DNA of 64,000 nucleotides from Microbacterium murale (GTDB lineage Bacteria; Actinomycetota; Actinomycetes; Actinomycetales; Microbacteriaceae), in NCBI RefSeq assembly GCF_030815955.1, contig NZ_JAUSXK010000001.1, forward strand, positions 3,906,001-3,970,000. The letters run 5' to 3'. The translations under genes and the position numbers were made by a program. The notes under the pieces were generated by a model. That model did no database searches and had not been told where the DNA came from. It was given only the letters and a program-made list of their open reading frames with translations. Of the stretch, positions 3,891-64,000 are shown piece after piece (position 1 is the first letter of the stretch; each line of letters opens with the position of its first letter).

Positions 3891-3896
3891 CAGCGC

Positions 3897-49920: not shown

Positions 49921-50319
49921 TCAGTCCCCGGTCGACCACGGGGTGCCTCCGAGCGCCATCGCCGGTTCAAGGGACCCGACGCCCTCGTCCTCGGCGCTGT
50001 CATCCATCGCAGGGTCCGACTCCGCATCGAGCACCTCCCCCGTTGCATGGTCGACGCCGACGGGTGCCGAATCCTGCCCGGACGACGGACGACTCGCCTT
50101 CACGAAAGCGCTTGCACCCCAACGCAGGTCATGCCCGATCGCCTCCGCCTCGATATCGGCGCTCATGCCCTTGCGCTCCGCGTTCTCCCACTCGCGCAGC
50201 TTCAGTTTGCCGGTCACGATCACGGCATCTCCCTGGTGCAGCGACGACTTGGCGTGATCGGCGAGCTGGCGGAAGGCGGAGACGTTGTACCAATTGGTGC
50301 CGGCGTAGCGTACATTCAT
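49921..50319 (-). pseudogene. Second single-stranded DNA-binding protein, N-terminus lost to prophage
   Basis: The remaining 132 codons encode the C-terminal two thirds of an OB-fold SSB: TNWYNVSAFRQLADHAKSSLHQGDAVIVTGKL and REWENAERKGMSADIEAEAIGHDL. The first ~45 codons (the ITVTGNIA beta strands) are missing. The sequence upstream of ATG 50319 is prophage. There is no DDDIPF-type tail, so this was an accessory SSB, matching Rv2478c, which also sits beside EttA. The start seen now (MNVRYAG) comes from the junction; the product is probably inactive. Confidence 0.85.
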
Positions 50320-50323
50320 CCAT
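50290..50323. other. Prophage attL junction (approximate)
   Basis: Host ssb codons (TNWY) end around here and the integrase gene starts at 50324. The exact crossover is not resolvable without attR, which lies outside the window. Confidence 0.6.
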
Positions 50324-51874
50324 GTGACTAGGAATCCACGCAGAGCCGCGATCTACGCTCGCATCTCGCAAGATACTGAAGGCGCCGAAGTAGGCGTAAG
50401 CAATCAGGTTGCGTCGGCGCGCGCACTGGCACAAGACCACGGCCTCGAGGTTGTCGCAACGTATCAGGACAACGACACCGGTGCGTCGTCGCTGTCGAAG
50501 AAGGCACGCCCCGACTTCGCCGCGCTCATCGCTGCCGCCGCGCGTGGCGAGTTCGAAGTGATCCTCGCCTATTCGATGAGTCGTCTTACGCGTCGGCCTG
50601 CCGAGTGGGAAACGCTCATCACGCTCGCCCAGACGCACAAGATCGAGTTCATCTATCGAGTCTCACCGCGCTACGACCTCAACACCGCAGACGGGCGCGC
50701 CACGGCTCGCACGGTCGCGGCTTGGGATGCGGCCGAGGCCGAGCGGACAGGCGAGCGCGTGCGCATGGCCAAGACCGCCGCGCTAGCGAAGGGCAAAGAC
50801 CTCGGTGGCCCTCGGCCGTTCGGCTGGGAACCCAGCCGCCGCGAGCACCGCCCCGCCGAAGCCGAGGCTATCCGGTCCGCCGCCGCCGCGATCCTGGCTG
50901 GCGCCTCGGTCAGCTCAGTCGCGAAGGCGTGGACGGCCGCTGGCATCGCTCCCCCGCGCGCTGGACGCCCGAGCCGCAACGGCGGCACAGCATCGCACCA
51001 GTGGCGGCCGCAGGCCGTGCGCCACATCTTGAGCAACCCTCGCCAGATTGGGCGCATGGTCGTCAAAGGCGTCGACTATGGCCGCGTTGCTGAACCGATC
51101 CTCACGGATCACGACCACGCCGCGCTGCTGGCGATTTTCGCGAACCCGGCACGCAAGCCCAAGCGCGGACCCGAACCTCTCACGTCGACCGCGCAACAGC
51201 TGGTCAAGTGCGGCACCTGTGGCGGCAGCATGAGCGCTGGCTACTCGCGCGGCTATCGCTCCATCCGATGCGCCGACGCGAGCTATCGCCCCGGCCCTCA
51301 CCCCGTGATCGCGCTTACGATCGCCGAAGCCCAACTCGGCGCGGCCGCACTCTGGGCCCTTACCTTTCAACAGCCCAAAGAGATCGAGAGCGTCACACCC
51401 GAGGTTGCCACGCTCCAAGTAAAGATCGCCGACGACAAAGCGAAGCTCGAGCGTGTGACCGCCGCATTCATCGGCGGCATCGGGGATCTCGATTATCTCG
51501 GGCGCGAATCAGTCACGCTGAAAGGCGCGATCGCCGACGCGCAGAGTCGTCTGGATGCACTACTGGCTCATAGTGACTCGGCGGGCGCGGTTGCCGTTGC
51601 GCGGCAGTTTGTCACCGGATGGGGTGAGGGTGCCTCGCTAATCGAGATCAGTCCCGAGAAGGCCTTCGGCGGCGCATGGGGTGAGTACTGGCAGAGTCTT
51701 GAGATCCCCGCGCGTCGCCGCCTCTTGCGCGGCCTCTTCCGCGATATCCGCACGGTCGCTGCCGACGATAGCGACCCTGGACGCTTCATCTATGACGGCG
51801 TGCGCCTTCACGTGAGCGCTGCCGAGCCGAGACCCTTTGACCTATCCAACCTCAACCCCGACGACGCATTCTAA
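50324..51874 (+). CDS. Large serine recombinase (phage integrase)
   Basis: 516 residues. Catalytic domain with nucleophile Ser15 in IYARISQDTEG and the conserved YSMSRLTRRPAEWE. Recombinase domain from ~160 (RPFGWEPSRREHRPAEAEAI, SKAWTAAGIAPP). Zinc ribbon CGTCGGSMSAGY with a later Cys in SIRCADASY, then a coiled-coil (LQVKIADDKAKLERVTAAF). Catalyses attP x attB integration. The GTG start lies right next to the attL junction, a normal arrangement for these integrases. Confidence 0.95.
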   Translation: MTRNPRRAAIYARISQDTEGAEVGVSNQVASARALAQDHGLEVVATYQDNDTGASSLSKKARPDFAALIAAAARGEFEVILAYSMSRLTRRPAEWETLITLAQTHKIEFIYRVSPRYDLNTADGRATARTVAAWDAAEAERTGERVRMAKTAALAKGKDLGGPRPFGWEPSRREHRPAEAEAIRSAAAAILAGASVSSVAKAWTAAGIAPPRAGRPSRNGGTASHQWRPQAVRHILSNPRQIGRMVVKGVDYGRVAEPILTDHDHAALLAIFANPARKPKRGPEPLTSTAQQLVKCGTCGGSMSAGYSRGYRSIRCADASYRPGPHPVIALTIAEAQLGAAALWALTFQQPKEIESVTPEVATLQVKIADDKAKLERVTAAFIGGIGDLDYLGRESVTLKGAIADAQSRLDALLAHSDSAGAVAVARQFVTGWGEGASLIEISPEKAFGGAWGEYWQSLEIPARRRLLRGLFRDIRTVAADDSDPGRFIYDGVRLHVSAAEPRPFDLSNLNPDDAF

Positions 51875-51890
51875 GAGAGAAGAGAGAACG

Positions 51891-52220
51891 TTGAATCAGA
51901 TGGCCCCCGACGAGAGGCGAGCAGTAACTCCCCCGCTCCCCAACCAGAACGTACTCATGCTAGAAAACATGAAGCGCGAGAAGGAGAAGACCGACGCATT
52001 CAACGCACTCGCATCGCGTGTGCTCAACGCAACCGAGCGCGCGAAGACGCTCGGCTTCATGCTCGGCGAAGATCGGACAGTCAAGAACGCCGATGCAGTC
52101 AGCGGCCCGTTCAGACTCTCACGACCGGCGCGCAGCATGGCCGACCAAGGCGCAAGTGTCGGGCGTCTGACGCTCGAGCAGGTGGAGCGCAAGCTCGATG
52201 AGATCGGCGCCTCGCGATGA
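51891..52220 (+). CDS. Phage hypothetical protein
   Basis: 109 residues, hydrophilic and mainly helical, with LMLENMKREKEKTDAFNALASRVLNATERAK in the middle, suggestive of a short coiled coil. No family recognised. TTG 51891 follows a purine-rich AAGAGAGAACG site; ATG 51900 is the alternative. Its stop overlaps the next gene start (ATGATG), so translation is coupled. Position right after the integrase suggests an early or lysogeny role. Confidence 0.6.
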   Translation: MNQMAPDERRAVTPPLPNQNVLMLENMKREKEKTDAFNALASRVLNATERAKTLGFMLGEDRTVKNADAVSGPFRLSRPARSMADQGASVGRLTLEQVERKLDEIGASR

Positions 52221-52573
52221 TGGGTCACAGCTTCGACCTATGGCGCGCACTCGATGGCTGGAGCGGCGGGTGCCGCGCGCATGGCGGTCGCACTGCACTC
52301 AACCGCACCCAGCGAGCCGCGAAGGTAGATCTCATCGAGTCGTGCGCCGCGCGGCAGGCAATGAGCTACCTCTCCAACATCGAGAGCATGACGGCGGACC
52401 TAACGCGGCACCCCGACGACAGGTGGACACATATATATCTCAAAAGGGCACTCGTTGAGGCCGATGCGCATGGCATCGGCGCGGCGCATCCCGAGATGCT
52501 CAACGCCCAGTTAGTACTGTCGCGCTGGACTGCGGAACGAGTGATTCCGAGCATGAGTTCATCTGCAGTCTGA
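52217..52573 (+). CDS. Phage hypothetical protein
   Basis: 118 residues; helical, with LWRALDGWSGGCRAHGGRTA at the N-terminus and LKRALVEADAHGIGAAHPEML near the C-terminus. No family recognised and no membrane segments. It overlaps the previous gene by 4 bp (ATGA) and ends 15 bp before the excisionase-like gene. Probably part of an early operon with the integrase. Confidence 0.55.
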   Translation: MMGHSFDLWRALDGWSGGCRAHGGRTALNRTQRAAKVDLIESCAARQAMSYLSNIESMTADLTRHPDDRWTHIYLKRALVEADAHGIGAAHPEMLNAQLVLSRWTAERVIPSMSSSAV

Positions 52574-52588
52574 TCGGAGACATGAACC

Positions 52589-52840
52589 ATGACCGAGGCA
52601 GTTCACACGCTGGAGGAAGCTGCTGAGATCCTCCGCGTGCCGTACCGCACGCTCCGAGATGGTGTCTACGCGGGACGTTGGCCGCACCGCAAGATATCCG
52701 AGCGCAAGAGGCTCATGACAGACGAAGATATTCAGGCGGTGCTCGATCTCACGGCTACCCAGCCATCCCCCACTGCGAACCCGAGCGAGTTCGCCGCCCG
52801 GACGACCAAAGCAAACGTCCTCGCACTCATGGATGGTTGA
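52589..52840 (+). CDS. Excisionase-type HTH protein
   Basis: 83 residues. MerR-like excise HTH: HTLEEAAEILRVPYRTLRDGVYAGRWPHRKISERKR, followed by DEDIQAVLDL. This is the typical excisionase (XisA/AlpA) architecture and could be the recombination directionality factor for the serine integrase or a small repressor. The ATG 52589 lies after a CGGAGACATGAACC leader with a GGAG site 10 bp upstream. Confidence 0.78.
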   Translation: MTEAVHTLEEAAEILRVPYRTLRDGVYAGRWPHRKISERKRLMTDEDIQAVLDLTATQPSPTANPSEFAARTTKANVLALMDG

Positions 52841-52889
52841 ACCATCGCCCCGTAACACCCGCGAACGCCCTGGTGGGTGAAGCCGAACC

Positions 52890-52920
52890 TCGACCCCGAC
52901 GCGATATCAGCACCTAAACT
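52890..52920 (+). promoter_or_regulatory. Repeated phage promoter-like motif, copy 1
   Basis: TCGACC (52890-52895), 19-nt spacer, TAAACT (52915-52920), with CTAGACG just after. It lies in the 252-bp gene-free interval 52841-53092, which otherwise contains only motif copy 2 and a leader. Confidence 0.65.
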
Positions 52921-52993
52921 CCTAGACGCTCCGCTCCATAACCCGCTCATCTGGCTTTCCTCTCTGGGCCAGGTGGGCGGGTTTCTACCTAGC

Positions 52994-53024
52994 TCGACCC
53001 CTTCCGGCGTCCGACTCCTAGACT
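52994..53024 (+). promoter_or_regulatory. Repeated phage promoter-like motif, copy 2
   Basis: TCGACC (52994-52999), 19-nt spacer, TAGACT (53019-53024) then CCGCCGC. Transcription from here would give a ~60-nt leader for the gene at 53093. Copies 1 and 2 are in tandem, 104 bp apart. Confidence 0.7.
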
Positions 53025-53092
53025 CCGCCGCATCAGGGCAGTAAACGCCAAGGCGCGGCTAGAGAGTCGCCACACCTCGAAGGACGGTACGC

Positions 53093-53473
53093 ATGACCAA
53101 TGACCCCTATGCCCCATACGGGCCGAACGTAAAGCTCTACCCCGCCAAGGGCGCAGGCTGGACGGCAACGACGGGCAGGATCGAGCAAACCAACGCTCTC
53201 GGCGTGACGCTCTCCTACTCGAACCCCGTCAATAAGCGCTTCACCACGACTTCGACTTTTCCGCTCTCATCGATCGACAGGATCGAGTACATCGCGGTTA
53301 CCTCGGCCATCGATCACGAGATCGACCGCGAAACCGACGCGAGCATCGCCGAGAAAGCCCGCGAGATCCGGGCGGACGGTCAACTAGAGATCATCGCCAG
53401 CGCCTCGGAAGAACTCGCAGAGCGCAACGGCGAACACACCCGGCGTGGCATTCGCGAGGTGAGCGCAGCGTGA
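53093..53473 (+). CDS. Phage hypothetical protein before the replication gene
   Basis: 126 residues. Beta-rich N-terminal half (KLYPAKGAGWTATTGRIEQTNALGVTLSYSN) and a charged helical C-terminal half (EIDRETDASIAEKAREIRADG). No family recognised. A GAAGGAC site lies ~8 bp before ATG 53093. It is coupled to the primase-polymerase by a GTGA overlap, so it may assist replication. Confidence 0.65.
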   Translation: MTNDPYAPYGPNVKLYPAKGAGWTATTGRIEQTNALGVTLSYSNPVNKRFTTTSTFPLSSIDRIEYIAVTSAIDHEIDRETDASIAEKAREIRADGQLEIIASASEELAERNGEHTRRGIREVSAA

Positions 53474-55317
53474 CTGTTGCCGAGGGCATCACCCCCGACC
53501 CCGTAAGTAAGCCTCTCGCGCTCGCTAGCCGCCTCGGCCTTGCCGTACTCCCCATACGCGACGACGGCTCTAAGCGCCCCGCCGGTCGCCTCGGTGTCTA
53601 TGACGCGACAACCGACCCTCAGCGCATCGTGGATCTCTGGACAGACCACCCCGGCTCGCTCGTCGGCGTCGCATGCGGCGCGAGCGGTCTGCTCGTCGTG
53701 GACATCGACCGACACGAAGGCGGCGCGGATGGATTCGCCAGTCTCGATGCGGCGGCGGTCGATCTTCCCGAGACCTGGCAGCACGCCTCGCTCTCGGGCA
53801 AGGGCTCGCATCTGGTCTATGCCGCGCCCGAAGGTGCCGCAGGCGGCTCGTCGCTCGCTGGCGTCGACCTCAAGGGCGCAGGCGGCTACATCGTATGGAC
53901 TGGCGACGTGCCAGCCTCGCGCGACCTCTTCGCCCCCGCTCCACAGTGGACACTGCGCCCCGCTCGCGAGAACGCCGCGCCGACCCCGGCTCGCGTGGCC
54001 GAGTGGATCACCGAGCACGTAGGCGAGCCTGACGCCAAGCTGGCCGACGCTCTTGCTGCTCTCCCCGCGCACGGCGCGCCCGAGTGGAGCAATGAGAATC
54101 TCGTCCCGCTAGCCCTGCCGCTCGTGCAGGCCGCTCGCTGGAGTCATGGCGGGGCGCAGGCTCGCGAGCGCTTTGTCGAGCGGTACGCGGCTGGCCAGTG
54201 GGCAGACGACGCGCACCGCAGGGATGCCGCGCGCGCGTTCGATCACGCCTTGGCCGAGATTGGCTACCCGGCCGCATTCGCCGCGATCCCCAATATCGAA
54301 GTGAGCGCCGAGACACTCCGCGCCTTCGGTTTCGATGCCGCGATCTCGGCGGAGTCGATCACGACCGCCGCACCCGCGCCCTTCAAGATCCTCACACGCG
54401 CCGACCTCAAGGCGCTCCCCCGCCCTGACTGGCTCATCGAAGGACTCGTGCAGGAATCGGGCATAGTCGTGCTCGCTGGCGAAGGTGGTCTCGGTAAGTC
54501 ATTCCTGGCCATCGACTGGGCATGCCGCCTCGCCACTGGCGAGAATTGGTTCGGCCGCAAGGTGAAGCGCGGCAGAGTGCTCTACGTCGCCGGCGAAGGT
54601 GTCGAGTTCTTCGATGATCGCCTCACCGCGTGGGAAGAGTACAACTCGCTCCGCGTGCCCGATGAGCGCTTGCAGTACGTCCGCGAAGGCTTCACCCTCT
54701 CCGATCCCGCATCGGTCGAGTACATGCGGCAGGCCGTCACCGAGCGCGCTTACGATCTCGTCATCCTCGACACGCTCTCGCAGCTCGCCGAGGTCGAGAA
54801 CGAGAACGACAACGCGCAGTTAGCCGCCATCATGCGCCAGGCCCGCGCGATCCGCCAGGCGCGGCCAGGGTGCTCGGTGCTCATCGTCCACCACACCAAT
54901 AAGGGCGAGCGCGGCAAGGTGCGCGGCGCCTCGGCCATCCGCTCAAACGCAGATGCCGTGATCGTTGCCAGGGCATCCGAGGGCGACACCTTCAAGCTCT
55001 CCACCAAGCTCGAGCACGACGGCAAGCAAAAGAACGGCGTGGCCGAGGTTCTCCCCGGTTTCCATCTGCTCGACGCTGGCCTCTCTGCCGTAGTCGAACG
55101 CCAGGGCGCAGCGGACCCCGACGCGCAGGCGATCGAACAGGTACTGGCCAACCCCGGCGAGCACGCTATCTCAGAGTTCCTGATCGCCCGCGGCGAGAAC
55201 GATCCCGCCACAGCAAAGAGAATCAAACGCAAGCTCGGCGACCTTGCCGAAGCTGGCCGGGTAGTCGTCACTGGATCGACCTCGGCCAGGCGCTGGCAGG
55301 CACTTGGACACGATTGA
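53470..55317 (+). CDS. Bifunctional primase-polymerase with RepA-like ATPase
   Basis: 615 residues. N-terminal Prim-Pol domain with the catalytic acidic pair in LLVVDIDRHEGG (Asp78, Asp80) and GKGSHLVYAAP. A RecA-like helicase domain follows, with Walker A GEGGLGKS (337-344), Walker B DLVILDTLSQL and VHHTNKG. This is the two-part replication initiator found in phages and plasmids: it primes DNA and unwinds or loads. Start GTG 53470 overlaps the previous stop (GTGA). A repeat-rich region follows, possibly the replication origin. Confidence 0.9.
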   Translation: MTVAEGITPDPVSKPLALASRLGLAVLPIRDDGSKRPAGRLGVYDATTDPQRIVDLWTDHPGSLVGVACGASGLLVVDIDRHEGGADGFASLDAAAVDLPETWQHASLSGKGSHLVYAAPEGAAGGSSLAGVDLKGAGGYIVWTGDVPASRDLFAPAPQWTLRPARENAAPTPARVAEWITEHVGEPDAKLADALAALPAHGAPEWSNENLVPLALPLVQAARWSHGGAQARERFVERYAAGQWADDAHRRDAARAFDHALAEIGYPAAFAAIPNIEVSAETLRAFGFDAAISAESITTAAPAPFKILTRADLKALPRPDWLIEGLVQESGIVVLAGEGGLGKSFLAIDWACRLATGENWFGRKVKRGRVLYVAGEGVEFFDDRLTAWEEYNSLRVPDERLQYVREGFTLSDPASVEYMRQAVTERAYDLVILDTLSQLAEVENENDNAQLAAIMRQARAIRQARPGCSVLIVHHTNKGERGKVRGASAIRSNADAVIVARASEGDTFKLSTKLEHDGKQKNGVAEVLPGFHLLDAGLSAVVERQGAADPDAQAIEQVLANPGEHAISEFLIARGENDPATAKRIKRKLGDLAEAGRVVVTGSTSARRWQALGHD

Positions 55318-55448
55318 GTAACCCGATGTCCAAGACGAATCCCCCGGAATCCTTGATTTTCCGGGGGATTCTGTCTTGTCCAAGTCGACTTGGACAACCG
55401 TCGCCGACCTTTAGGGAGGCGTCGGCGTCCAAGAGAGTGAAGTCTAAG
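55303..55448. repeat. CTTGGACA/TGTCCAAG repeat cluster, possible phage origin or operator
   Basis: CTTGGACA (55303-55310), TGTCCAAG (55327-55334), the 22-bp perfect palindrome TTGTCCAAGTCGACTTGGAC AA at 55376-55397, GTCCAAG (55427-55433) and GTCTAAG (55442-55448). The first copy lies inside the end of the replication gene. Such iterons next to a replication protein suggest an origin; the palindrome could also be a repressor site. Confidence 0.55.
55337..55371. terminator. Strong hairpin after the replication gene
   Basis: GAATCCCCCGGAA (55337-55349) and TTCCGGGGGATTC (55359-55371), 13 bp perfect with a 9-nt loop, 20 bp past the stop codon. It may end the early transcript or structure the putative origin. 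Confidence 0.6.
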
Positions 55449-55467
55449 AGGCGTGAGAAGTGCGACC

Positions 55468-55498
55468 TCGACCCCCTAGCACCTCTGACACCTAGACT
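55468..55498 (+). promoter_or_regulatory. Repeated phage promoter-like motif, copy 3
   Basis: TCGACC (55468-55473), 19-nt spacer, TAGACT (55493-55498), then CCGCCGC. The ATG at 55507 comes 8 nt after the TAGACT, so the transcript would be leaderless. Confidence 0.75.
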
Positions 55499-55506
55499 CC
55501 GCCGCT

Positions 55507-56226
55507 ATGGCGAAGGCAACAAACTCCGAACGTGACGCGCTCATCGTGCGCATGTGGCACGAAGGCGCGCCCGCCGTTGAGATCGGCAACGCGCTCGGTA
55601 TTAGTCGTATGGGCGCGTTCTATCACGTCGCTCGGCTCGGACTACAGCGGCGCGACCGAGTGCAGATCTCCAACCCCGTGCGCGCGGAACTTACGAGGCT
55701 ATGGCACGAAGGCGAGACAGTGCAGGCGATCGCCGACAGGCTCGGACTGAAGCACTCCCACGTAAGCACGGTTGCCAGGGCAGATGGCTTGCCACCTCGC
55801 CGCGCATCGAGCACAGGTTCCGCCGAGCGCCATCGAGAGTTGGCGCGGCTATGGGGCGAAGGCGTACCCGCCGCCGAGATCGCCGAACGGTTAGGTCTGG
55901 CAGTAAGCAGTGTGGTCAGCATCCGCATGAGGCTTCAACTCCCGCCAAGAAAGACGAAGTACACGGCTGAGCAACTCGACGCGATCCGCCAGCGTTGGGC
56001 AGAAGGCGTACCCGCCGCCGAGATCGCCGATCAGATCGGCCGCAGCCGAGAAGGGGTGCTCTCCGCCTCGCTTCGCCTCGGCCTTGAGCCTCGCGGCACA
56101 GGCTGGCGACGTGGCGAATTCCCGTCGGAATGCACCCTCCCTGATTGCAGCGCACCCCACCATGCCAGAGGCCTATGTGGTCGGCACTACCAGGCAGCTC
56201 TGCGAGCCGAGAAGAGAGCCGCGTGA
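55507..56226 (+). CDS. Four-repeat helix-turn-helix protein with C-terminal zinc motif
   Basis: 239 residues. Four tandem units of about 40-50 residues each carry the pattern W-x-E-G, A-x-E-I and LG. They are MWHEGAPAVEIGNALGIS, LWHEGETVQAIADRLGL, LWGEGVPAAEIAERLGL and RWAEGVPAAEIADQIGR, each predicting an HTH. The end (CTLPDCSAPHHARGLCGRHY) is a Cys/His zinc motif seen in phage proteins. This looks like a DNA-binding protein; the exact role is unknown. The start follows promoter motif copy 3 without a leader. It is coupled by GTGA to an HNH gene. Confidence 0.75.
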   Translation: MAKATNSERDALIVRMWHEGAPAVEIGNALGISRMGAFYHVARLGLQRRDRVQISNPVRAELTRLWHEGETVQAIADRLGLKHSHVSTVARADGLPPRRASSTGSAERHRELARLWGEGVPAAEIAERLGLAVSSVVSIRMRLQLPPRKTKYTAEQLDAIRQRWAEGVPAAEIADQIGRSREGVLSASLRLGLEPRGTGWRRGEFPSECTLPDCSAPHHARGLCGRHYQAALRAEKRAA

Positions 56227-56510
56227 GCACGCATTCATCCAAAGGCGCAGCGTGGCGACGGTTCCGTGTCGAGATCCTCAACCGCGATGGATGGACATGC
56301 CAAGCATGCGGCAATGAGCTGATCGAAGGTCACGCGCAGCGCGAGCATCAACCGACCGTGGATCACATCGTGCCCAAGGCCAAAGACGGACGCGATGAGC
56401 ACTCAAACGCAGTCGCGATGTGCATGAGATGCAACGGCCTTAAGGGCGACAAGAGCGCACCCCCTCGGATCGACTGGATCAACACCGATTGGCTGGCGCG
56501 CGGCTCATGA
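56223..56510 (+). CDS. HNH endonuclease
   Basis: 95 residues. Core: FRVEILNRDGWTCQACG, then VDHIVPKAKDGRDEHSNAVAMCMRCNGLKGD, giving C-x2-C pairs and the D-H-I-V-P/N/H catalytic set. In HK97-like phages an HNH protein next to the terminase works with it in DNA packaging (cos cleavage). GTG 56223 overlaps the previous stop. Just downstream are two hairpins. Confidence 0.92.
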   Translation: MSTHSSKGAAWRRFRVEILNRDGWTCQACGNELIEGHAQREHQPTVDHIVPKAKDGRDEHSNAVAMCMRCNGLKGDKSAPPRIDWINTDWLARGS

Positions 56511-56540
56511 GCCCTCTCTCTTTTTTAGAGAGCGACCCCT

Positions 56541-56570
56541 AGGAGGCCCCGCCTCCTCTTCTTTCTTCAC
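56541..56570 (+). terminator. Terminator after the HNH gene
   Basis: AGGAGGC (56541-56547), CCC loop, GCCTCCT (56551-56557), followed by pyrimidine-rich CTTCTTTCTT. Just before it a CTCTCT-TTTTTT-AGAGAG hairpin (56513-56532) overlaps the stop region. Confidence 0.65.
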
Positions 56571-56605
56571 AAACAACCCTGAAATATCCGGAGAGGTCAC
56601 ACATC

Positions 56606-56863
56606 ATGACCGATAGCACCGCAGACCGCTTTGCAAGCGCCGTAGAGCGCTTCGAATCGTCCGCGCCGTGGCTGGGAGATCCTCACGCCCCTGCGCTCGT
56701 CACGCTCCACGTACTGGCCGAGACCCTCGACGCTGGCGACCTCACCCCCGCACTGGTCGCGCAGTTCGGTCTGACGTTCCGTAGCCTCGCCAAGCTCGCG
56801 CCGACGGCCAACGCCGCCGAGGATCCACTCGAAAAGGCGCTCAGAGACGCTGGCGCGACGTGA
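56606..56863 (+). CDS. Candidate terminase small subunit
   Basis: 85 residues, all helical and acidic at the start, with ESSAPWLGDPHAPALVTLHVLAETLDAG and a final ~30-residue helix (FGLTFRSLAKLAP). Its size and place just ahead of terL and after HNH suit a small terminase, but no HTH signature is obvious and a hypothetical role is equally possible. A GGAGAGG site lies ~9 bp before ATG 56606. Confidence 0.5.
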   Translation: MTDSTADRFASAVERFESSAPWLGDPHAPALVTLHVLAETLDAGDLTPALVAQFGLTFRSLAKLAPTANAAEDPLEKALRDAGAT

Positions 56864-56871
56864 CGATTCCG

Positions 56872-57252
56872 CTATTCGCTCTCATCATCGGTGCAGTTCG
56901 CTTCAAGGTTCCACATCGCCAAGTCGAAGGGCAAGAATGTCGAGCCCTGAGACTCGGCCCCTCTCGCAATCCATGTGTCGTACCGATCCGCCGTATCGGC
57001 GATAACTTCCTGTGTGTCACCGTTGGCCAACGCCCCCGCATCCGCCATCTGCGATGCGAGCGGCTCATGATCGTCGGCGGTGCCGTCCGAGTTGATCAGG
57101 TCTTGCGAGTCATTGAATGCACTCATGGCCTGAGCGCACGCCCGCTCATTGTCCTGCTCGAGCGCCTCTACCTTTTCAGCCGAAGGCCCGCACGCTGTCA
57201 GCAACAGCATCGACAGGACACCAACACTGGCCACCGGGTATGTGCGCTTCAT
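56872..57252 (-). CDS. Prophage lipoprotein on the opposite strand (moron candidate)
   Basis: 126 residues. Signal peptide MKRTYPVASVGVLSMLLLTAC with a lipobox LTAC at residue ~21, then a helical, acidic domain (KVEALEQDNERACAQAMSAF, two more Cys). Secreted and lipid-anchored. It is transcribed against all neighbours. Its own -10 TAATGT (57265-57260) ends 7 nt before ATG 57252. This layout, a self-promoted surface lipoprotein gene inside a structural block, is typical of lysogenic-conversion genes such as superinfection exclusion lipoproteins. Confidence 0.75.
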   Translation of the reverse strand: MKRTYPVASVGVLSMLLLTACGPSAEKVEALEQDNERACAQAMSAFNDSQDLINSDGTADDHEPLASQMADAGALANGDTQEVIADTADRYDTWIARGAESQGSTFLPFDLAMWNLEANCTDDESE

Positions 57253-57278
57253 ATTTCAGACATTAGCGGCATGGACTC

Positions 57279-58748
57279 ATGACGCCCTCACCGCCCTACG
57301 CCGATATCAAGGCGTGGCCGCCGCCGCGCTACACACCGCCGCTCTCCCCCGACTTCGAAAGCGCCTTCGACCGGCACGCCGCGACCTTCGCGATCGTGTG
57401 GGATGCCGCGTTCGGCTACGCGCTCGAAGAGTGGCAGATCCAACTCATTCGCGCGGTGCTTGAAGTCTTCCCCTCTGGCCATCCGCGCGCAGGCCAACTG
57501 CGCTGGCAGCAAGCAGTCATCTCGCTTGGCCGGCAGAACGGGAAAACCGAGATCGCCGCAGCGCTTGGCCTCTGGCGACTCATCTCGAAGCCGACGACTC
57601 TAGTTATCGGCATCGCCTCGAATGCCGATCAGGCAGGTCTGGTCTATCGCCGCGCCATGCGGGCAGTCAACGGCAACCCCGCACTCTCTAAGCGCTTCAG
57701 GCGCACGACCGAGACGCGCGGCCTGCAGACTGCCGAAGGCGGCCGATACGACATCAAGGCCGCCAAGAGCGCCGCGCTCCAAGGTCTGCCCATCGATCTC
57801 GGTCTAGTCGATGAGTTGCACCTTCTCCGCCGCGCGCTTTGGGGAGACCTTCTCTCCGGTACAGGTGGCCGCCCTGATTGCATCGTGGTCGGTATCTCGA
57901 CCGCTGGCGATTCTGACTCAGAATTGCTCATCGACCTCTATAAGCTCGGCGATCAGGCCATCGAAGACAACGGCGCGGCGCGCGTATTCTTCGCGTGCTG
58001 GGAGTCGCCAGAGGGTCGCGTGCCCGACGATGACGAGACACTGGGCCGATGGCTCGCGATGGCCAACCCCGCCGTGGCCAGCGGGCGCACAGACCTCGAA
58101 GCGCTCATCACGCTCGTGCGCACGAAGCCGCCCCAGGATGCCGTGCGCTATCACCTCAACCGATTCTTGACCTCGACGCGCTCGCCGTACATCGAACCCG
58201 CGCTATGGCTCGGCGCAGCGCGCAAGCCTGGCGCGACATTCCCCCGCGATGCGCGAATCGTCTTCAGCTTCGACGCCGCCCCCGGCCTCGATTTCGTTTC
58301 CATCGTGGCCACCGCCAGCGCCGACGATGGCACCATCCACTCTGAACTTGTCGCCTCACTGCGTGCGCCTTCACTTGACCGGCTCTTCCGTATCGCGCTG
58401 CAGCTCCAGAAATATCGACCGGCGACGTTCGCGATCGATGGCACGTTTCTACGCGCGCTCGGCAAGGATCTCACTAAGCGCGGCTTGCCTGTCATGATCG
58501 GCACTTACTCGGACGCGATCAGCGCAAGCGCCATGCTTTACCGGCTCGTCATCACTGGCCAGCTTGCGCACGGCAGGGATGACCTACGCGCGATGCAGAT
58601 GCAGCGCGCCACGCGTAAGAATGCTGGCGACTCTTTCGTAATCTCGCGCGCCGACTCGTCAACCGAGGTCGATGCCGTCAAGGCCACCGCGCTAGGCGTG
58701 CTCGCTCTCGATGTCGCTCCCGCCCCCGCTGGCGTGCAGGTCTTCTAG
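57279..58748 (+). CDS. Terminase large subunit
   Basis: 489 residues. Packages phage DNA. ATPase motifs: Walker A at residues 84-90 (GRQNGKT, after WQQAVISL), Walker B LGLVDELHLL, coupling motif SGTGGRPDCIVVGISTAG. The nuclease domain has Asp in FSFDAAPGLDF and a final acidic DAVKATALGVLALD. Length fits phage TerL. The ATG at 57279 has no obvious ribosome binding site and is just 26 bp from the divergent lipoprotein gene. A possible minus-strand ORF overlaps its last 57 bp. Confidence 0.94.
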   Translation: MTPSPPYADIKAWPPPRYTPPLSPDFESAFDRHAATFAIVWDAAFGYALEEWQIQLIRAVLEVFPSGHPRAGQLRWQQAVISLGRQNGKTEIAAALGLWRLISKPTTLVIGIASNADQAGLVYRRAMRAVNGNPALSKRFRRTTETRGLQTAEGGRYDIKAAKSAALQGLPIDLGLVDELHLLRRALWGDLLSGTGGRPDCIVVGISTAGDSDSELLIDLYKLGDQAIEDNGAARVFFACWESPEGRVPDDDETLGRWLAMANPAVASGRTDLEALITLVRTKPPQDAVRYHLNRFLTSTRSPYIEPALWLGAARKPGATFPRDARIVFSFDAAPGLDFVSIVATASADDGTIHSELVASLRAPSLDRLFRIALQLQKYRPATFAIDGTFLRALGKDLTKRGLPVMIGTYSDAISASAMLYRLVITGQLAHGRDDLRAMQMQRATRKNAGDSFVISRADSSTEVDAVKATALGVLALDVAPAPAGVQVF

Positions 58749-58862
58749 CTGGACGCCATCGAGGCCCACGAAGACCCCGCACGCCTCGCAGAACCACCAA
58801 GCCGCGCGCGGCTCCATCCGCCTCAGGCACCGAGGGCAGTTCGGCGTATCGAGATCATCCAC
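58692..58862 (-). CDS. Possible small zinc-ribbon protein, antisense to terL end
   Basis: 56 residues starting at GTG 58862. Two Cys pairs (CPRC and CEAC) separated by a basic/aromatic linker (LRRMEPRAAWWF) form a zinc ribbon, then an acidic tail. It fills the 185-bp terL-portal gap and overlaps the terL 3' end by 57 bp on the opposite strand. A GAGG site lies ~5 bp upstream. It may be a real phage gene or chance; the Cys pattern is unlikely by chance. Confidence 0.4.
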   Translation of the reverse strand: MDDLDTPNCPRCLRRMEPRAAWWFCEACGVFVGLDGVQLEDLHASGGGSDIESEHA

Positions 58863-58894
58863 GCCTCGATCATCGCAAAGTCTTCTAGTGAACC

Positions 58895-58925
58895 TCGACC
58901 CCGGTGCACAAGTCATACCTAGACT
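58895..58925 (+). promoter_or_regulatory. Repeated phage promoter-like motif, copy 4
   Basis: TCGACC (58895-58900), 19-nt spacer, TAGACT (58920-58925), then CCGCCGC. ATG 58934 lies 8 nt after TAGACT, identical to copy 3, and defines the portal start. Confidence 0.75.
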
Positions 58926-58933
58926 CCGCCGCG

Positions 58934-60082
58934 ATGCGAGCACCACAGACACCCCTGGCCCGAGCGATGGCTCGACTTTTCAAGCGCGACGACGCGCCGG
59001 TTAGCGATCCGATCACGATCCCGTCACGCTCCGAATCCGCCGCCGAAGTCTCGCCCAACGAAGCGCTCACGCTCGGCGCGGTCTATCGCGCGGTCTCCAT
59101 CCGCGTCGCTGGCCTCTGCCAACTCTCCATCGACGTTGAGCGCGCAGGCAAGACCATTACGACTCCTTCGCTACTCACTCGCCCCGATGTCGATACGTCA
59201 TACCGGGCCTTCATCGAACAAACCGCCGTGAGCCTCTCACTCGCCGGTAACGCCTACTGGCGCATCACCCGCAATGACCGCCTCGAAGTGTCGAGCCTCG
59301 AAGTGCTCAATCCTCACGACGTGACGATTCGCACTAACGCTGCTGGCCGCGTCGTCGGCTTCAGCCATCGCGGCGCTGATCTCAAGACTTCCGAGATCAA
59401 GCATCTCTCTAAGCTCCGCGTGCCTGGCACGCCCTATGGCCTCGGTCCAATCCAAGCCGCTCGCGCCGAGCTTCGCGGCGCTATCGACCTTCGCGACTAC
59501 GCCTCGAAGGTGAGTACCGCGAGCGACGTTCCCACAGGCGTGCTCTCCGCTTCGATGCCTCTCACCGACGAAGAGGCGAAGGCGACCAAAGCCGCGTGGC
59601 AGGAATCCCACGGCGGCAAACGTGGCGTGGCAGTGCTCGGCAGCGGACTCACCTACGCCGCAACCTACCTGACCCCCGCTGACGCGCAGTTCCTCGAGTC
59701 GCAGCGCTTCAGTGTCATCGCAATCGCTCGACTCTTCGGCGTGCCTGCCTCGCTAATGCTCTCTGGTATCGATGGCTCGGCGCTGACCTACGCGAACATC
59801 AGCCAAGAGTGGCTCGGCTTCGTCAAGTTCGGCCTGGCCGACGATATCGCTGAGATCGAAGAGGCCTTCTCCGATCTTCTCCCCCGAGGCCAGCGCGCCC
59901 GTTTCAACCCCGAAGCGCTGCTCCGCCTCGACACCACTGGCCGCTACGCCGCGCATGAGTCCGCTCTACGCGCTGGCTGGCTGCTTCCGAGCGAAGTACG
60001 CGCGATCGAGAACCTCCCTGAGGTCTCGGACATTGATACTCGCGTGCCGCCCGCACGCCCGACCGAGAAGGCGGCCGCATGA
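58934..60082 (+). CDS. HK97-family portal protein
   Basis: 382 residues. Forms the dodecameric DNA entry port of the capsid. Recognisable stretches: LTLGAVYRAVSIRVAGLCQLS, NAYWRITRN, LRVPGTPYGLGPIQAAR and the C-terminal RLFGVPASLML, YANISQEWLGFVKF. ATG 58934 is preferred over ATG 58904 because the repeated promoter motif's -10 ends 8 nt ahead of it; 58904 lies inside the promoter. It overlaps the protease-capsid gene by 4 bp. Confidence 0.93.
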   Translation: MRAPQTPLARAMARLFKRDDAPVSDPITIPSRSESAAEVSPNEALTLGAVYRAVSIRVAGLCQLSIDVERAGKTITTPSLLTRPDVDTSYRAFIEQTAVSLSLAGNAYWRITRNDRLEVSSLEVLNPHDVTIRTNAAGRVVGFSHRGADLKTSEIKHLSKLRVPGTPYGLGPIQAARAELRGAIDLRDYASKVSTASDVPTGVLSASMPLTDEEAKATKAAWQESHGGKRGVAVLGSGLTYAATYLTPADAQFLESQRFSVIAIARLFGVPASLMLSGIDGSALTYANISQEWLGFVKFGLADDIAEIEEAFSDLLPRGQRARFNPEALLRLDTTGRYAAHESALRAGWLLPSEVRAIENLPEVSDIDTRVPPARPTEKAAA

Positions 60083-61650
60083 GCGACCTCGAATACCGCA
60101 GCTTCCAAGTCCGCGAGGCTGGCCCCGAGACACGCACCTTCAGCGGCATCGCTGTGCCGTGGGATACGCCTGCCGACATTGCGGGTCTCTACACCGAGCG
60201 CATCGAGCGCGGCGCCGTCACGATCCCCGCATCCGGCAAGGTGCTGCTCTACTCCCGCCACCGAGATCCCATCGGCCTAGTCACTAAGTGGGAAGACTCC
60301 GACGATGGCTGGCGCGTTGAGGCGCGGATCTCACAGACGCCGACCGGCGACGAGGCGTACACGCTGCTTCGCGATGGCGTGGTCGATGAGCTTTCGATCG
60401 GCTTCGTTCCGATCGAGCATCGCGAGGACGACGAGACCGGCGACATTACCCGTACGCGCATCGAGGTACGCGAGACCTCCCTTGTTCCCTTCGGCGCCTA
60501 CGGCGTCGATGCCGCAGTAACCGACGTTCGCTCGGCGGACAACCCAACCCCATCCAGAGAAAGGGCAGTTATGCCTGAAGACAACACCGCCGCCGAGGTT
60601 ACCGAACTCCGCGCGGCAGTCGATGAGATCGACCGCAAGATCTCCACCCTCGCAGTTCGTACCGACGACGCCCCGAGCGCCGACACGCGCAGCGCTGGCG
60701 AGATCCTTAAGGCCATCGTTTCCGGCGATGAGTCCACCATCCGCGCGTACGAAGCCCTCTACGCAGAGCGCGCCTACACCGGCGGCACGACCGCCGACGC
60801 GATCGCGAAGCCCGAAGGCATCGTCAACCTGGTCCGCATCTTCGACGCATCCTCGGGAGTGCTCGCCGATGTCTTCAGCACCGGCACCGCACCCGCCAAG
60901 GGCAACAACATCGAATTCGCCGAGGTTGGCTCGAACACGATCGACGTGACTGAGCAGGCCGCCGAAGGCGATGACATCACCTTTGGCAAAGTCTCGATCA
61001 CGCGCCGCACTGCGCCGATCAAGACCTACGCAGGCGGTACGCAGCTCACCCGCCAGGAGATCGAGCGCGCAACCGATGTGAACATGCTCACAACCTCGCT
61101 TGAGGCTCTCGCTACCGCCGCAGGCGCTCGCAAGAAGGCAGTACTCCGCGCAGCATTCAACACGCTCGTGACGGCTCGCCGCGCGATCGCCGCAGATGCA
61201 GGCGTCGTCGGCCTCGGCGCAACCCTGGCCGCTGGTACCGCTGGCAATTGGGAAGACGCCCTCATCGATGCCGCTCTCAAGTTCGAGCTTGAGAACCTCT
61301 CCCCCGAAGCGCTCATCGTTTCCGGCACAGTCTTCAAGAAGCTCCGCAGTCTCACCGTTGCCGGTGAGCGCGTCTTCCGCGTAGGTGAGAAGAACAACTC
61401 TGGCACGCTCGACCTGCCTGGCCTCGCTGGCGACTTCGCCGGTATCCCGGTACGGCTCGACTCTGGGCAGACTGGCGATTCGGCAGTGTTTGTCAATGAG
61501 CGCGCGATCCGCGCTTATGACTCGCCGCTGGTCTCGCTTAGTGATGAGTCGCTCGTGAATCTCTCCAAGAGCTTCGCTGTCTACCGTTACGGCGCAGTCG
61601 CCGCCGAGATCCCCTCGGGCGTCGTCCCCGTCAAGCTGGCGGCCGCGTAA
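60079..61650 (+). CDS. Prohead protease fused to major capsid protein
   Basis: 523 residues. Residues 1-~155 form an HK97-type S78 protease, with the catalytic His in LYSRHRDPIGLV and the Ser in DELSIGFVP. From ~165 comes a major capsid protein: helical delta region (EVTELRAAVDEIDRKI), then P-domain/A-domain stretches (GIVNLVRIFDASS, TAPIKTYAGGTQLTRQE). An in-frame ATG 60571 with an AGAAAGGG site starts capsid alone (359 residues), so two products are likely. Overlaps portal stop by 4 bp. Confidence 0.92.
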   Translation: MSDLEYRSFQVREAGPETRTFSGIAVPWDTPADIAGLYTERIERGAVTIPASGKVLLYSRHRDPIGLVTKWEDSDDGWRVEARISQTPTGDEAYTLLRDGVVDELSIGFVPIEHREDDETGDITRTRIEVRETSLVPFGAYGVDAAVTDVRSADNPTPSRERAVMPEDNTAAEVTELRAAVDEIDRKISTLAVRTDDAPSADTRSAGEILKAIVSGDESTIRAYEALYAERAYTGGTTADAIAKPEGIVNLVRIFDASSGVLADVFSTGTAPAKGNNIEFAEVGSNTIDVTEQAAEGDDITFGKVSITRRTAPIKTYAGGTQLTRQEIERATDVNMLTTSLEALATAAGARKKAVLRAAFNTLVTARRAIAADAGVVGLGATLAAGTAGNWEDALIDAALKFELENLSPEALIVSGTVFKKLRSLTVAGERVFRVGEKNNSGTLDLPGLAGDFAGIPVRLDSGQTGDSAVFVNERAIRAYDSPLVSLSDESLVNLSKSFAVYRYGAVAAEIPSGVVPVKLAAA

Positions 61651-61653
61651 GCC

Positions 61654-61974
61654 ATGACCGCCGCCGATCTGCTCGCCTACATCTCTACCGAGGGTCTCGA
61701 TCCGACGTCCTCCGAAGAGACGTTCGCGGGCGCGTGCTGGGAGCAGGCCGCCGCGCTGATCTCCCAGCACATCGGCGCGGCCACAGTGCCCACGATCATT
61801 ACCGAGCGGGCAACCCTCGAAGTGGGCGCCGAACTCTTCCACCGCCGCGATACGAAGAACGGTATTTCGCAGTTCATGAGTACCGACGGCGGGCAGGCGC
61901 TCCGAGTTGCGCGCGACCCAATGGTTGCCGCGTATCCGCTACTCGCCCCTTACGTCGGCCGAGGCATCGCATGA
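61654..61974 (+). CDS. Head-tail connector-like protein
   Basis: 106 residues, mostly helical (LISQHIGAATVPTIITERATLEVGAELFHRRD, then ARDPMVAAYPLLAPYVGRG), the pattern of HK97 gp6-type connectors that stack under the portal. It starts right after the capsid stop and overlaps the next gene (ATGA). Family call is by position and helical pattern, not by strict homology. Confidence 0.65.
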   Translation: MTAADLLAYISTEGLDPTSSEETFAGACWEQAAALISQHIGAATVPTIITERATLEVGAELFHRRDTKNGISQFMSTDGGQALRVARDPMVAAYPLLAPYVGRGIA

Positions 61975-62342
61975 GCCTCGCGGCCGAGCGCAAGGCCGTC
62001 GCCGCGCTGCTCACCGCTGGCGGCATCCGCACCGCTGCGCACGTACCGAGCGACCCTAAGCCTCCCTTGGCCATGGTTACGCCCGGTACGCCCTACCTCG
62101 CCACGCGCGACGACTACACCGGCGACCGCGTAGCTCGCTTTGATATCTGGCTCGTCATCGGCACCGCCATCAGTAACACGGCGCTAGCCGACGCGATGGA
62201 TGAGCGCATCTCTGAAGTGCTCGCGATCCTCGATGGCTCCGACTGGCTCGTTTACGAAGTGAGCGCCGACCAGTGGGAGCCCGCAGGCGGCAGCAAGTTC
62301 GCCGTCGCGATCATCAGCATCTCGAACACCATCACCCCCTAA
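61971..62342 (+). CDS. Head closure or tail terminator-like protein
   Basis: 123 residues with a small alpha/beta layout: helical start (MSLAAERKAVAALL), Pro-rich loop, then strands FDIWLVIGT and LVYEVSADQWEP. Such proteins occur between connectors and tail tube genes in siphoviruses. ATG 61971 overlaps the previous stop (ATGA). Homology not certain. Confidence 0.55.
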   Translation: MSLAAERKAVAALLTAGGIRTAAHVPSDPKPPLAMVTPGTPYLATRDDYTGDRVARFDIWLVIGTAISNTALADAMDERISEVLAILDGSDWLVYEVSADQWEPAGGSKFAVAIISISNTITP

Positions 62343-62362
62343 CCACGATTGGAAAATACCGC

Positions 62363-62773
62363 ATGTCAACACGCATCAAGGGCAAGCGCCTCAGTCTGAC
62401 TCTCGGCGCACCTGGCGTTGAGGTCTGGCAAGACATCAAGGGTCTCACTCTTCAGTCTGAAGACCCCGACGATCCCACCTTCGGAGACATCGCCGATGGC
62501 GTAGCCAAGTGGCTACTCTCCGGCACCGCAGTGCAGTCGACCGACGAGACCTCTTTCTGGTCTTACGTCTGGGAGAACGCTGGCCAGCGCGTCGCGTACA
62601 CCTACGCCGTGCACGGCAACGAAGAGCCGAGCCTAACTCAGCCGCATTTCGTCGGCTTCGTCTACGTCGGCCGCAAGCCTTCACTCGGTGGAGAGGTCAA
62701 CTCTTCCGGCTATGAGTTCGAATTCGAGTGGGAGTGCGACGGCGAGCCGACGAAGGTGACCGGCACGCCATGA
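62363..62773 (+). CDS. Tail tube-like protein, first paralogue
   Basis: 136 residues, beta-rich. Contains KRLSLTLGAPGVEVWQDI, WLLSGTAVQSTD, and the C-terminal part KPSLGGEVNSSGYEFEFEWECDGEPTKV. The shape and place fit a small major tail/tube protein. The next gene encodes a protein with the same pattern (SGTA/EGSA, VGRKP/IGPKP, LGG, FEFEWE/FEFAWE, EPT), so they are tandem paralogues. ATG 62363 gives MSTRIKGKRL. It overlaps the next gene by 4 bp. Confidence 0.7.
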   Translation: MSTRIKGKRLSLTLGAPGVEVWQDIKGLTLQSEDPDDPTFGDIADGVAKWLLSGTAVQSTDETSFWSYVWENAGQRVAYTYAVHGNEEPSLTQPHFVGFVYVGRKPSLGGEVNSSGYEFEFEWECDGEPTKVTGTP

Positions 62774-63171
62774 CCTTCCAGCGGCTCGGTTCACGCTCTC
62801 GCCCGTCGATAACCCTCGACCGCCTTGAGCGTGCAATCGAGCTGCTCGATTACCGGCTCGCGCCGACCCCTGGCGACGACATGACCTACCTCAGCCCATT
62901 TCCTGAATCGGAGTGGACGCTCGAGGGGTCGGCCTATCAGTCGCTCGACGCCGGCAGCCTCTACCGCTACGCACGCGAGCACTCGGGCGAGACCGTGGCG
63001 TTTACGATCCGGCCTCTCGGTAACGCCATGGCGACCGCGTACGCCCCGCACTACACCGGCGAAGTGGTCATCGGTCCGAAGCCCGCACTCGGCGGCTCGG
63101 CCAGCGCCCGATTCTTCGTCTTTGAGTTCGCGTGGGAAGTGCCCGATGAGCCGACGGAGGTGATCGAATGA
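62770..63171 (+). CDS. Tail tube-like protein, second paralogue
   Basis: 133 residues. Related to the preceding gene across most of its length: WTLEGSAYQSLD, GETVAFTIRPLGN, HYTGEVVIGPKPALGG, FVFEFAWEVPDEPTEV. The start differs (MTFQRLGSRSRPSI), and an insert appears around residues 20-45. It is coupled to its neighbours by ATGA overlaps. Possibly one paralogue makes the tube and the other is a minor or assembly component. Confidence 0.65.
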   Translation: MTFQRLGSRSRPSITLDRLERAIELLDYRLAPTPGDDMTYLSPFPESEWTLEGSAYQSLDAGSLYRYAREHSGETVAFTIRPLGNAMATAYAPHYTGEVVIGPKPALGGSASARFFVFEFAWEVPDEPTEVIE

Positions 63172-63536
63172 GCGATCGCATCCGCGTAGAAGGTCTCCGC
63201 GAGGCCGTGCGCGCACTCGACCGCGCAGGCGTAGATGCGCAGGACATGAAAGACGTCATGTTTGCGATCGGGATGCTCGTCGTCAACGCGACGATGCCGC
63301 CCCGCGACTCCGGCACGCTCGCTGGCACGCTCCGCGCTGGCCGAGGCAAGACCAAGGCCGTAGTACGCGCTGGCGGCGCGAGAGCGCCTTACGCGGGCGT
63401 CATTCACTACGGCTGGCCAGGCCACGGCATCCGCCCTCAGCCTTTCCTGTCCGACGCCCTACAGCGCAAGCGCAGCGACATCTTCCGATCGCTCGATCAG
63501 GGCGTCTCCCAGATCCTCAAAGCCAACGACCTGTAG
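63168..63536 (+). CDS. HK97 gp10-family tail completion protein
   Basis: 122 residues. N-terminal helix VEGLREAVRALDRAGVDAQDMKD and the family-typical PRDSGTLAGTLRAGRGKTKAVVRAG, then YAGVIHYGWPGHGIRPQPFLSDAL near the end. These proteins act at the head-tail interface. It overlaps the previous stop (ATGA). Confidence 0.82.
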   Translation: MSDRIRVEGLREAVRALDRAGVDAQDMKDVMFAIGMLVVNATMPPRDSGTLAGTLRAGRGKTKAVVRAGGARAPYAGVIHYGWPGHGIRPQPFLSDALQRKRSDIFRSLDQGVSQILKANDL

Positions 63537-63569
63537 CACCCCAACACCCCTCTGAAAGAGAGACACATC

Positions 63570-63884: not shown

Positions 63885-63890
63885 CCCCCG

Positions 63891-64000
63891 ATGGACGACG
63901 TGACGGCAGAGCGCCTCGAAGATATGGCCTCTTTCGTCGTGGCCTTCCACTGGACGCCCGCCGACTACATGTCGATGACTCTCGCCGAGCGCGAGGCCAT
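63891..64000 (+). CDS. Tail gene start, possible chaperone partner (cut by window edge)
   Basis: 36 codons visible (MDDVTAERLEDMASFVVAFHWTPADYM...), open to the edge. The FHWTPADYMSMTLAERE stretch recalls the second half of tail assembly chaperones. It starts 6 bp after the previous stop with no strong ribosome binding site, so translation is probably coupled. Confidence 0.55.
   Translation, partial: MDDVTAERLEDMASFVVAFHWTPADYMSMTLAEREA

What the first reader, a model, noticed from the sequence alone, without database searches (positions are those of the whole stretch)
52890..58925. Four copies of a fixed-spacing promoter-like motif in prophage intergenic DNA
CTCGACC(CC) and TAGACT/TAAACT are separated by exactly 19 nt at 52890, 52994, 55468 and 58895, usually followed by CCGCCGC. 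At copies 3 and 4 an ATG follows TAGACT by exactly 8 nt, implying leaderless start-linked promoters. The -10 looks standard, but the upstream box is not the usual TTGACA, so a phage activator or altered sigma contact is likely. This resembles start-associated repeats of some mycobacteriophages, but the sequence differs.
Basis: partly seen in the sequence, partly recalled or inferred. Interest (0 to 1): 0.78.

Follow-up and report, generated by a model that had tools for sequence, protein, structure and literature searches.

The report
Shared leaderless promoters of a prophage
Four near-identical switch-like control sequences sit in front of the replication, packaging and capsid gene groups of a small integrated phage-like element and probably start messages right at or near the start codon, so one private regulator could turn the whole element on or off.

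Summary
Four copies of CTCGACCCC-N16-CTARACTCC (copies 2-4 plus GCCGC) lie at 52889, 52993, 55467 and 58894, the only exact ones in the 4.11 Mb genome, far above chance. Boxes are conserved, spacer and flanks are not: selection, not recent copying. They fit actinobacterial sigma-A promoters: -10 TAGACT, 19-nt spacing, ATG 8 nt after the -10 without Shine-Dalgarno at copies 3 and 4. Six of 22 gene starts of the element have TANNNT 6-8 nt upstream, so leaderless starts look general there.

New: the two boxes are a 25-bp direct repeat of one asymmetric unit, ACCTMGACYCC (P=0.0014, post hoc), overlapping -35 and -10. The sites precede only the replication, HTH/packaging and head-tail operons. The motif is private: only isolated, chance-like hits elsewhere. 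The four-HTH protein behind copy 3, with no full-length relative found, is the best candidate regulator, unproven. Copy 1 runs into a strong hairpin and may be an operator only.

The parts
52889..52922 (+). Copy 1: CTCGACCCC-N16-CTAAACTCC; variant -10 (TAAACT), no CCGCCGC, no start codon at +8; extra operator or promoter of a short RNA
52940..52983 (+). 18-bp hairpin with few T after it, just downstream of copy 1; possible terminator closing the int-xis operon
   Evidence: -33 kcal/mol, z -6.1, 0 of 200 shuffles; not listed by the terminator scan, which asks for 5 T in 8
52993..53031 (+). Copy 2: CTCGACCCC-N16-CTAGACTCCGCCGC; inferred promoter of orf126 and the primase/helicase gene, with a leader of about 60 nt and an AAGGA ribosome site
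53093..53473 (+). orf126, unknown function, first gene behind copy 2; one relative found (Microbacterium sp. NPDC087589)
53470..55317 (+). primase-polymerase / AAA helicase
55467..55505 (+). Copy 3: CTCGACCCC-N16-CTAGACTCCGCCGC, 8 nt between TAGACT and ATG 55507, no Shine-Dalgarno: inferred leaderless promoter
55507..56226 (+). HTH4: protein with four helix-turn-helix units and no full-length relative found; candidate regulator of the motif
58894..58932 (+). Copy 4: CTCGACCCC-N16-CTAGACTCCGCCGC, 8 nt between TAGACT and ATG 58934, no Shine-Dalgarno: inferred leaderless promoter of the portal/head/tail operon
58934..60082 (+). portal protein, first gene of the structural operon
50304..64000 (+). 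integrated element, left 13.7 kb in the window (serine integrase at 50324; continues 4.2 kb to the right, L026 1-4236); splits an ssb gene

Best explanation
The four sites are composite promoter-operators of one regulon. Each is a host sigma-A-type promoter (-35-like TCGACC, 19 nt, -10 TAGACT or TAAACT) whose -35 and -10 are each embedded in one copy of an asymmetric 11-bp unit ACCTMGACYCC, 25 bp apart in direct repeat. Copies 2-4 drive replication, HTH/packaging and head-tail genes; at copies 3 and 4 the start codon is placed at the expected transcription start (leaderless). A dedicated DNA-binding protein of the element binds the paired units and switches the three operons together; since the second unit covers the -10, steric repression in the lysogen is the likelier action. 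The best candidate is the four-HTH protein behind copy 3, which would then be autoregulated. Shown: sequence, conservation, uniqueness, position, direct repeat. Inferred: promoter activity, leaderless start, protein binding, its sign, and its identity.
For: Box 1 is 100% and box 2 82% identical between copies (box 2 is 100% among copies 2-4); the 16-nt interior is 36%, flanks 28-32%. 4 of 4 exact genome copies are in the element. Direct repeat at period 25: 27 of 36 matches, P=0.0014 over periods 10-31 by column permutation. All 7 exact CTMGACYCC units of the element lie in the pairs, on the + strand; the eighth unit has one mismatch (18 further one-mismatch units lie elsewhere, 15 on +, 3 on -). 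TANNNT lies 6-8 nt before 6 of 22 gene starts (int, HTH4, lipoprotein, portal, m270, m308) and within 45 nt of none of the other 16. Of those six only HTH4 and portal have the box, so the box does not mark int, the lipoprotein or the right-end genes. Portal genes of 5 of 15 loci, this one included, have TANNNT 6-8 nt before a possible start, in different sequence. C. glutamicum sigma-A data fit. HTH4 found only itself at E<=0.001; its HTH units resemble GcrA and sigma-70 region 4 and weakly a PHROG named transcriptional repressor (E 3.7e-4).
Against: No transcript data. The strict sigma-70 scan found 0 promoter-like sites against 1.7 in shuffles (16-18 nt spacing only). The box pair is absent from every relative scanned, so there is no comparative support for the box itself; 10 of 15 portal loci lack the -10 at 6-8 nt. 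The direct-repeat test is post hoc. HTH4 is not wholly without kin: partial HTH matches exist in Sulfitobacter phages (30% over 47%), one G054 element (27%), L028 and L029 (38-41 aa), the last three elements without the motif. HTH4 was modelled from one sequence (pLDDT 72.9, pTM 0.33) with no Foldseek match below 0.001. Copy 1 would start a transcript into a hairpin. No protein was named an immunity repressor in the scans, and HTH4 lies in a packaging operon, an odd place for a lysogeny repressor.
Confidence: 0.55

Rival explanations
1. One reading: activator-dependent promoters. A phage protein binds CTCGACCCC at the -35 and recruits sigma-A RNA polymerase to the -10; the likeness of the two boxes is a coincidence of sequence.
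For: 9-nt upstream box fully conserved and not TTGACA; 19-nt spacing is at the upper limit of the allowed range; replication and structural genes should be off without a trigger (general knowledge).
Against: Box-to-box direct repeat and conservation through the -10 and CCGCCGC are not expected from a -35 activator site alone.
Confidence: 0.25
2. Ordinary host sigma-A promoters, kept alike by promoter duplication or weak selection only; no dedicated regulator.
For: -10, spacing and leaderless start are within actinobacterial norms (PMC3890552); first genes of other operons also have plain -10s.
Against: Interior and flanks at background identity speak against a recent duplication; 9 of 9 positions (all copies) and 14 of 14 (copies 2-4) identical are more than sigma-A needs, and int, lipoprotein, m270 and m308 lack the box.
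Confidence: 0.15
3. Sites for something other than transcription (replication, packaging or partition iterons).
For: Short asymmetric units, one orientation, intergenic.
Against: Fixed register to a -10-like element and to start codons at 2 of 4; spread in front of three operons rather than clustered.
Confidence: 0.05

Closest known systems
L5-type operators/stoperators of cluster A mycobacteriophages (PMC9283540, abstract and passages seen)
   Same: short asymmetric site, in one orientation to transcription, several per genome, at promoters and in intergenic gaps; bound by a repressor monomer with two DNA-binding domains
   Different: those are more than twenty 13-mers; here 8 units in pairs 25 bp apart inside a promoter; sequence not compared letter by letter; no protein named as such a repressor found
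Cluster EC 18-bp and EI 30-bp intergenic repeats of Microbacterium phages (PMC7302621, passages and section 12 seen)
   Same: repeated intergenic motif in phages of the probable host genus; the EC consensus also starts with TAGaCT; function unknown
   Different: EC sites lie 21-30 bp upstream of starts and upstream of the ribosome site; EC sequence otherwise differs; 12 and 5 copies; the EI sequence was not seen
SAS/ESAS of cluster K mycobacteriophages (PMC3203893, passages seen)
   Same: repeated, start-linked, phage-specific, mostly one orientation
   Different: SAS is GGGATAGGAGCCC at the ribosome-site position, typically 3-7 bp before starts; ESAS are 17-bp inverted repeats; here no ribosome site and direct repeats
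Leaderless sigma-A promoters of actinobacteria (PMC3890552, abstract and passages seen)
   Same: TAnnnT -10 a few nt before a start codon, weak -35
   Different: a strictly conserved 9-nt box and CCGCCGC shared by a set of operons

Membership tests
Actinobacterial sigma-A promoter | -10 hexamer TAnnnT | tested here: met
   4 of 4 copies (TAGACT x3, TAAACT x1)
Actinobacterial sigma-A promoter | -35/-10 spacing 16-19 nt | tested here: met
   19 nt in 4 of 4; range from PMC3890552
Actinobacterial sigma-A promoter | -35 resembling ttgnca | tested here: inconclusive
   TCGACC agrees at 3 of 5 specified positions; strict sigma-70 scan found none
Actinobacterial sigma-A promoter | transcription start mapped downstream | not testable with these tools
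   no RNA data
Leaderless gene start | TAnnnT 6-8 nt before the start codon and no Shine-Dalgarno | tested here: met
   copies 3 and 4; copies 1 and 2 have no start codon there
SAS/ESAS (cluster K) | GGGATAGGAGCCC-like sequence at the ribosome-site position; 17-bp inverted repeats | tested here: not met
   sequence, by eye against PMC3203893
L5-type operator/stoperator | asymmetric site in one orientation to transcription | tested here: met
   all 8 units of the pairs on the + strand, upstream of + strand operons
L5-type operator/stoperator | more than twenty 13-mer sites | tested here: not met
   8 units in 4 pairs
L5-type operator/stoperator | L5-like repressor encoded | tested here: inconclusive
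   no family named immunity repressor among 10 proteins or the two right-end genes; HTH4 weakly matches phrog_6223, transcriptional repressor (3.7e-4)
Cluster EC Microbacterium phage repeat | same consensus and position | tested here: not met
   EC consensus and 21-30 bp distance differ beyond TAGaCT
Cluster EI Microbacterium phage repeat | same consensus | not tested
   its sequence is in a figure not held
Capsid-forming phage satellite (cf-PICI) | own head and packaging genes but tails supplied by a helper | tested here: not met
   head and packaging genes present, but major tail, chaperone and tape measure genes too; definition from PMC10690885, passages; helper dependence not testable

The most novel reading that the evidence does not exclude
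An integrated, satellite-like element of 17.9 kb that has head, packaging and tail-tube genes but no recognisable tail-tip or lysis genes runs its whole lytic programme as a single-switch regulon: replication, packaging and structural operons share one promoter-operator in which a direct repeat of a single asymmetric unit forms both the -35 and the -10, and a private, autoregulated four-HTH protein reads the pair, two HTH units per repeat.
Probability: 0.15. Interest if true: 0.65.

Novelty: new variant of a known kind. Interest (0 to 1): 0.42.

Why it matters
Repeated intergenic motifs are described in several actinophage groups, with function unknown for the Microbacterium EC and EI ones and for SAS. 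Here the register to a -10 and to start codons gives a specific, cheap test of function, and a single small element supplies both sites and a candidate reader. If confirmed it would show a one-switch regulon in place of an early/late cascade.

Tried and rejected
Motif as chance: rejected. Motif as recent duplication: disfavoured by random interior and flanks. Motif as a family-wide phage promoter: rejected. TYGACM-N16-20-TANACT and the box pair are absent from L026, L028, L029, L031-L035, L037, L038 and L103-L111; L036 has one single TTGACA form at 1867 and no box pair. A much looser pattern (one substitution, TANNNT) gives scattered hits in relatives and host DNA alike. Viral scans gave 0 of the full form and 10 of a shorter form, 7 of them one shared sequence context. 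Genus scan, up to 1 mismatch: own genome plus one one-mismatch hit in 294 others, one hit for the reversed control. Family draw, exact: own genome plus one isolated hit in 397 others (8 of these same-genus), two for the reversed control. Other elements having their own motif of this kind: a spaced-dyad search over 13 sequences, 5 shuffles each, found nothing comparable; it was dominated by repeats in the tape measure gene and its top rows did not show this motif either, so it is weak. Relatives of HTH4 or orf126 in viral contigs: none; orf126 in 365 other same-genus genomes: none. Rfam: no match in 50000-64000. Fold search of HTH4: no match below 0.001. A first genome scan used a spacer one base too long and is not used. 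In some searches the row named MTP was out of frame (stops written as X) and is not used; its start is 3 nt early.

Full report
What is there. The window lies at 3906001-3970000 of a single-contig 4.11 Mb genome. The genus is not given; a Microbacterium is inferred from the only other protein found for orf126 and from the best terminase matches, in Microbacterium phages (the 20 listed of 674 records). From about 50304 an integrated element begins: a serine integrase beside a broken ssb gene, whose missing part lies at the far end of the element (Pfam SSB profile positions 47-101 on the left, 3-41 on the right). The element is about 17.9 kb. Its genes are int, two small unknown genes, an excisionase-like gene, orf126, a primase-polymerase/helicase, HTH4, HNH, orf85, a lipoprotein-like gene on the other strand, terminase, portal, protease-capsid fusion, connectors, tail tube, chaperone, tape measure and two unknown leftward genes, m270 and m308.

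The motif. Four copies of CTCGACCCC-N16-CTARACTCC lie at 52889, 52993, 55467 and 58894 on the + strand; copies 2-4 continue GCCGC. They are the only exact matches in the genome for TCGACC-N17-CC-TANACT. Three hundred shuffles of the element gave one TCGACC-N19-TANACT. All four are intergenic, in an element that is 7.2% intergenic by my gene list. The first box is identical in all pairs, the second 82% on average, the 16-nt interior 36% and the flanks 28-32%, so the boxes are held by selection.

Promoter and leaderless start. TAGACT fits TAnnnT. In C. glutamicum about 97% of starts have TAnnnT at 3-11 nt, allowed -35 spacing was 16-19 nt, the -35 was weak, and about 33% of mRNAs were leaderless (PMC3890552, abstract and passages). 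In this element 6 of 22 gene starts have TANNNT 6-8 nt upstream: int, HTH4, lipoprotein, portal, m270 and m308, each apparently first in its operon; the other 16 have none within 45 nt. In the same DNA 12 of 1032 ATG/GTG triplets have it. HTH4 and portal starts have no Shine-Dalgarno, nor have int, lipoprotein and m308, while m270 has AGGA and orf126, behind copy 2, has AAGGA. Among relatives, 5 of 15 portal loci (this one included) have TANNNT 6-8 nt before a possible start, in other sequence contexts; 10 of 15 do not. L036 has TTGACA-N16-TACATT-N7-ATG there. The strict sigma-70 scan found no site.

Direct repeat. CTCGACCCC and CTAGACTCC agree at 7 of 9 positions; with the upstream AC, 9 of 11 in copies 3 and 4. 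Over the four copies the period of 25 gives 27 of 36 matches, and permuting columns reaches this in 0.14% of 5000 trials over periods 10-31. I noticed the repeat before testing it, so this value is generous. CTMGACYCC has 7 exact occurrences in the element, all in these pairs; 19 have one mismatch, one of them the eighth unit. The second unit covers the -10, the first the -35. A protein sitting on both would exclude RNA polymerase, which is why I prefer repression to activation; I cannot show either.

Which operons. Copy 2 precedes orf126 and the primase gene, copy 3 HTH4 and the packaging genes, copy 4 the portal, head and tail genes. Int, lipoprotein, m270 and m308 have plain -10s without the box. 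Copy 1 is 104 bp (9.9 turns of 10.5 bp) before copy 2 and is followed by an 18-bp hairpin (-33 kcal/mol, z -6.1) that may end the int-xis operon; its tail has few T and the terminator scan did not list it. Copy 1 may be an auxiliary operator, or yield a short RNA; both are guesses.

Candidate regulator. HTH4 found only itself among about 5.8 billion proteins at E<=0.001, in a search that needs shared 5-residue words, and nothing in viral contigs. Partial HTH matches exist: six records of Sulfitobacter phages (30% over 47% of the protein), one element of G054 (27%), short pieces in L028 and L029. Pfam sees repeated HTH units, best GcrA N-terminal (57.2 bits), also sigma-70 region 4 and HTH_23; PHROGs give DNA-binding, HNH and unknown families and one weak one named transcriptional repressor. 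The PDB sequence search finds CAP repeat 8vd6, 2lvs (titled CRISPR repeat binding protein) and weakly GcrA. The single-sequence model has four tri-helical units (pLDDT 72.9, pTM 0.33). The motif is private and HTH4 has no full-length relative found, which fits a pair but does not prove it. The L5-type repressor, one chain with two DNA-binding domains on an asymmetric site (PMC9283540, abstract and passages), shows that such reading is possible.

Distribution. Outside this genome: 294 same-genus genomes gave one one-mismatch hit, and one for the reversed control; 397 other genomes of a family draw gave one isolated exact hit against two for the reversed control; IMG/VR gave none of the full form and ten unrelated of a shorter form. 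The nearest elements (portal 57-80%: L028; L029, which gives the same matches as G176; L031; one of two in G054) lack the box pair.

Known kinds. Repeated intergenic motifs are described for Microbacterium phages EC, EF, EG and EI (PMC7302621, passages and section 12) and SAS/ESAS for cluster K (PMC3203893, passages; PMC12699233, passages). I found no description of this motif in the topic searches, which cover only the held open-access library and were not searches for its letters. I file it as a new variant: a promoter-operator with a direct repeat forming -35 and -10.

The element. After the tape measure gene this element and its nearest relatives show no recognisable tail-tip or lysis gene: L028 (3 of 4 ORFs scanned) and L031 (4 of 4) by PHROG and Pfam, L029 with one DUF2510 gene, G054 by reading its ORFs only. 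L033, farther off, has minor tail genes there (2 of 5 ORFs scanned). One gene before the tape measure, 61971-62342, weakly matches a PHROG named minor tail protein (8.5e-6). This could be a satellite-like group or a phage group with unrecognised tail tips and lysis genes; not resolved.

Noticed in passing
window 50304 to L026:4236 (17.9 kb): The element has integrase, replication, packaging, head, tail-tube and tape measure genes but no recognisable tail-tip or lysis genes (one weak 'minor tail' match at 61971-62342); nearest relatives L028, L029, L031 and one G054 element look the same after the tape measure gene, while L033 has minor tail genes there. Possible satellite-like group.
   Followed up: partly
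window 49921-50319 and L026:4212-4553: The element is inserted in an ssb gene: the two pieces match complementary parts of the Pfam SSB profile.
   Followed up: partly
L028:14924-15865 (-): The relative's right end carries a CAP12/Pycsar-type TIR protein, a likely anti-phage defence gene; the window element has two unknown leftward genes at that place (L026:2294-3106, 3198-4124), without PADLOC match.
   Followed up: partly
G054 contig C1, about 2011000-2049000: Two related elements lie about 22 kb apart in one genome (portals at 2018786 and 2041401).
   Followed up: no
window 52889 and 52993: Copies 1 and 2 are 104 bp apart, close to 10 helical turns, with a strong hairpin between them; DNA looping or a short terminated RNA are possible.
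   Followed up: no
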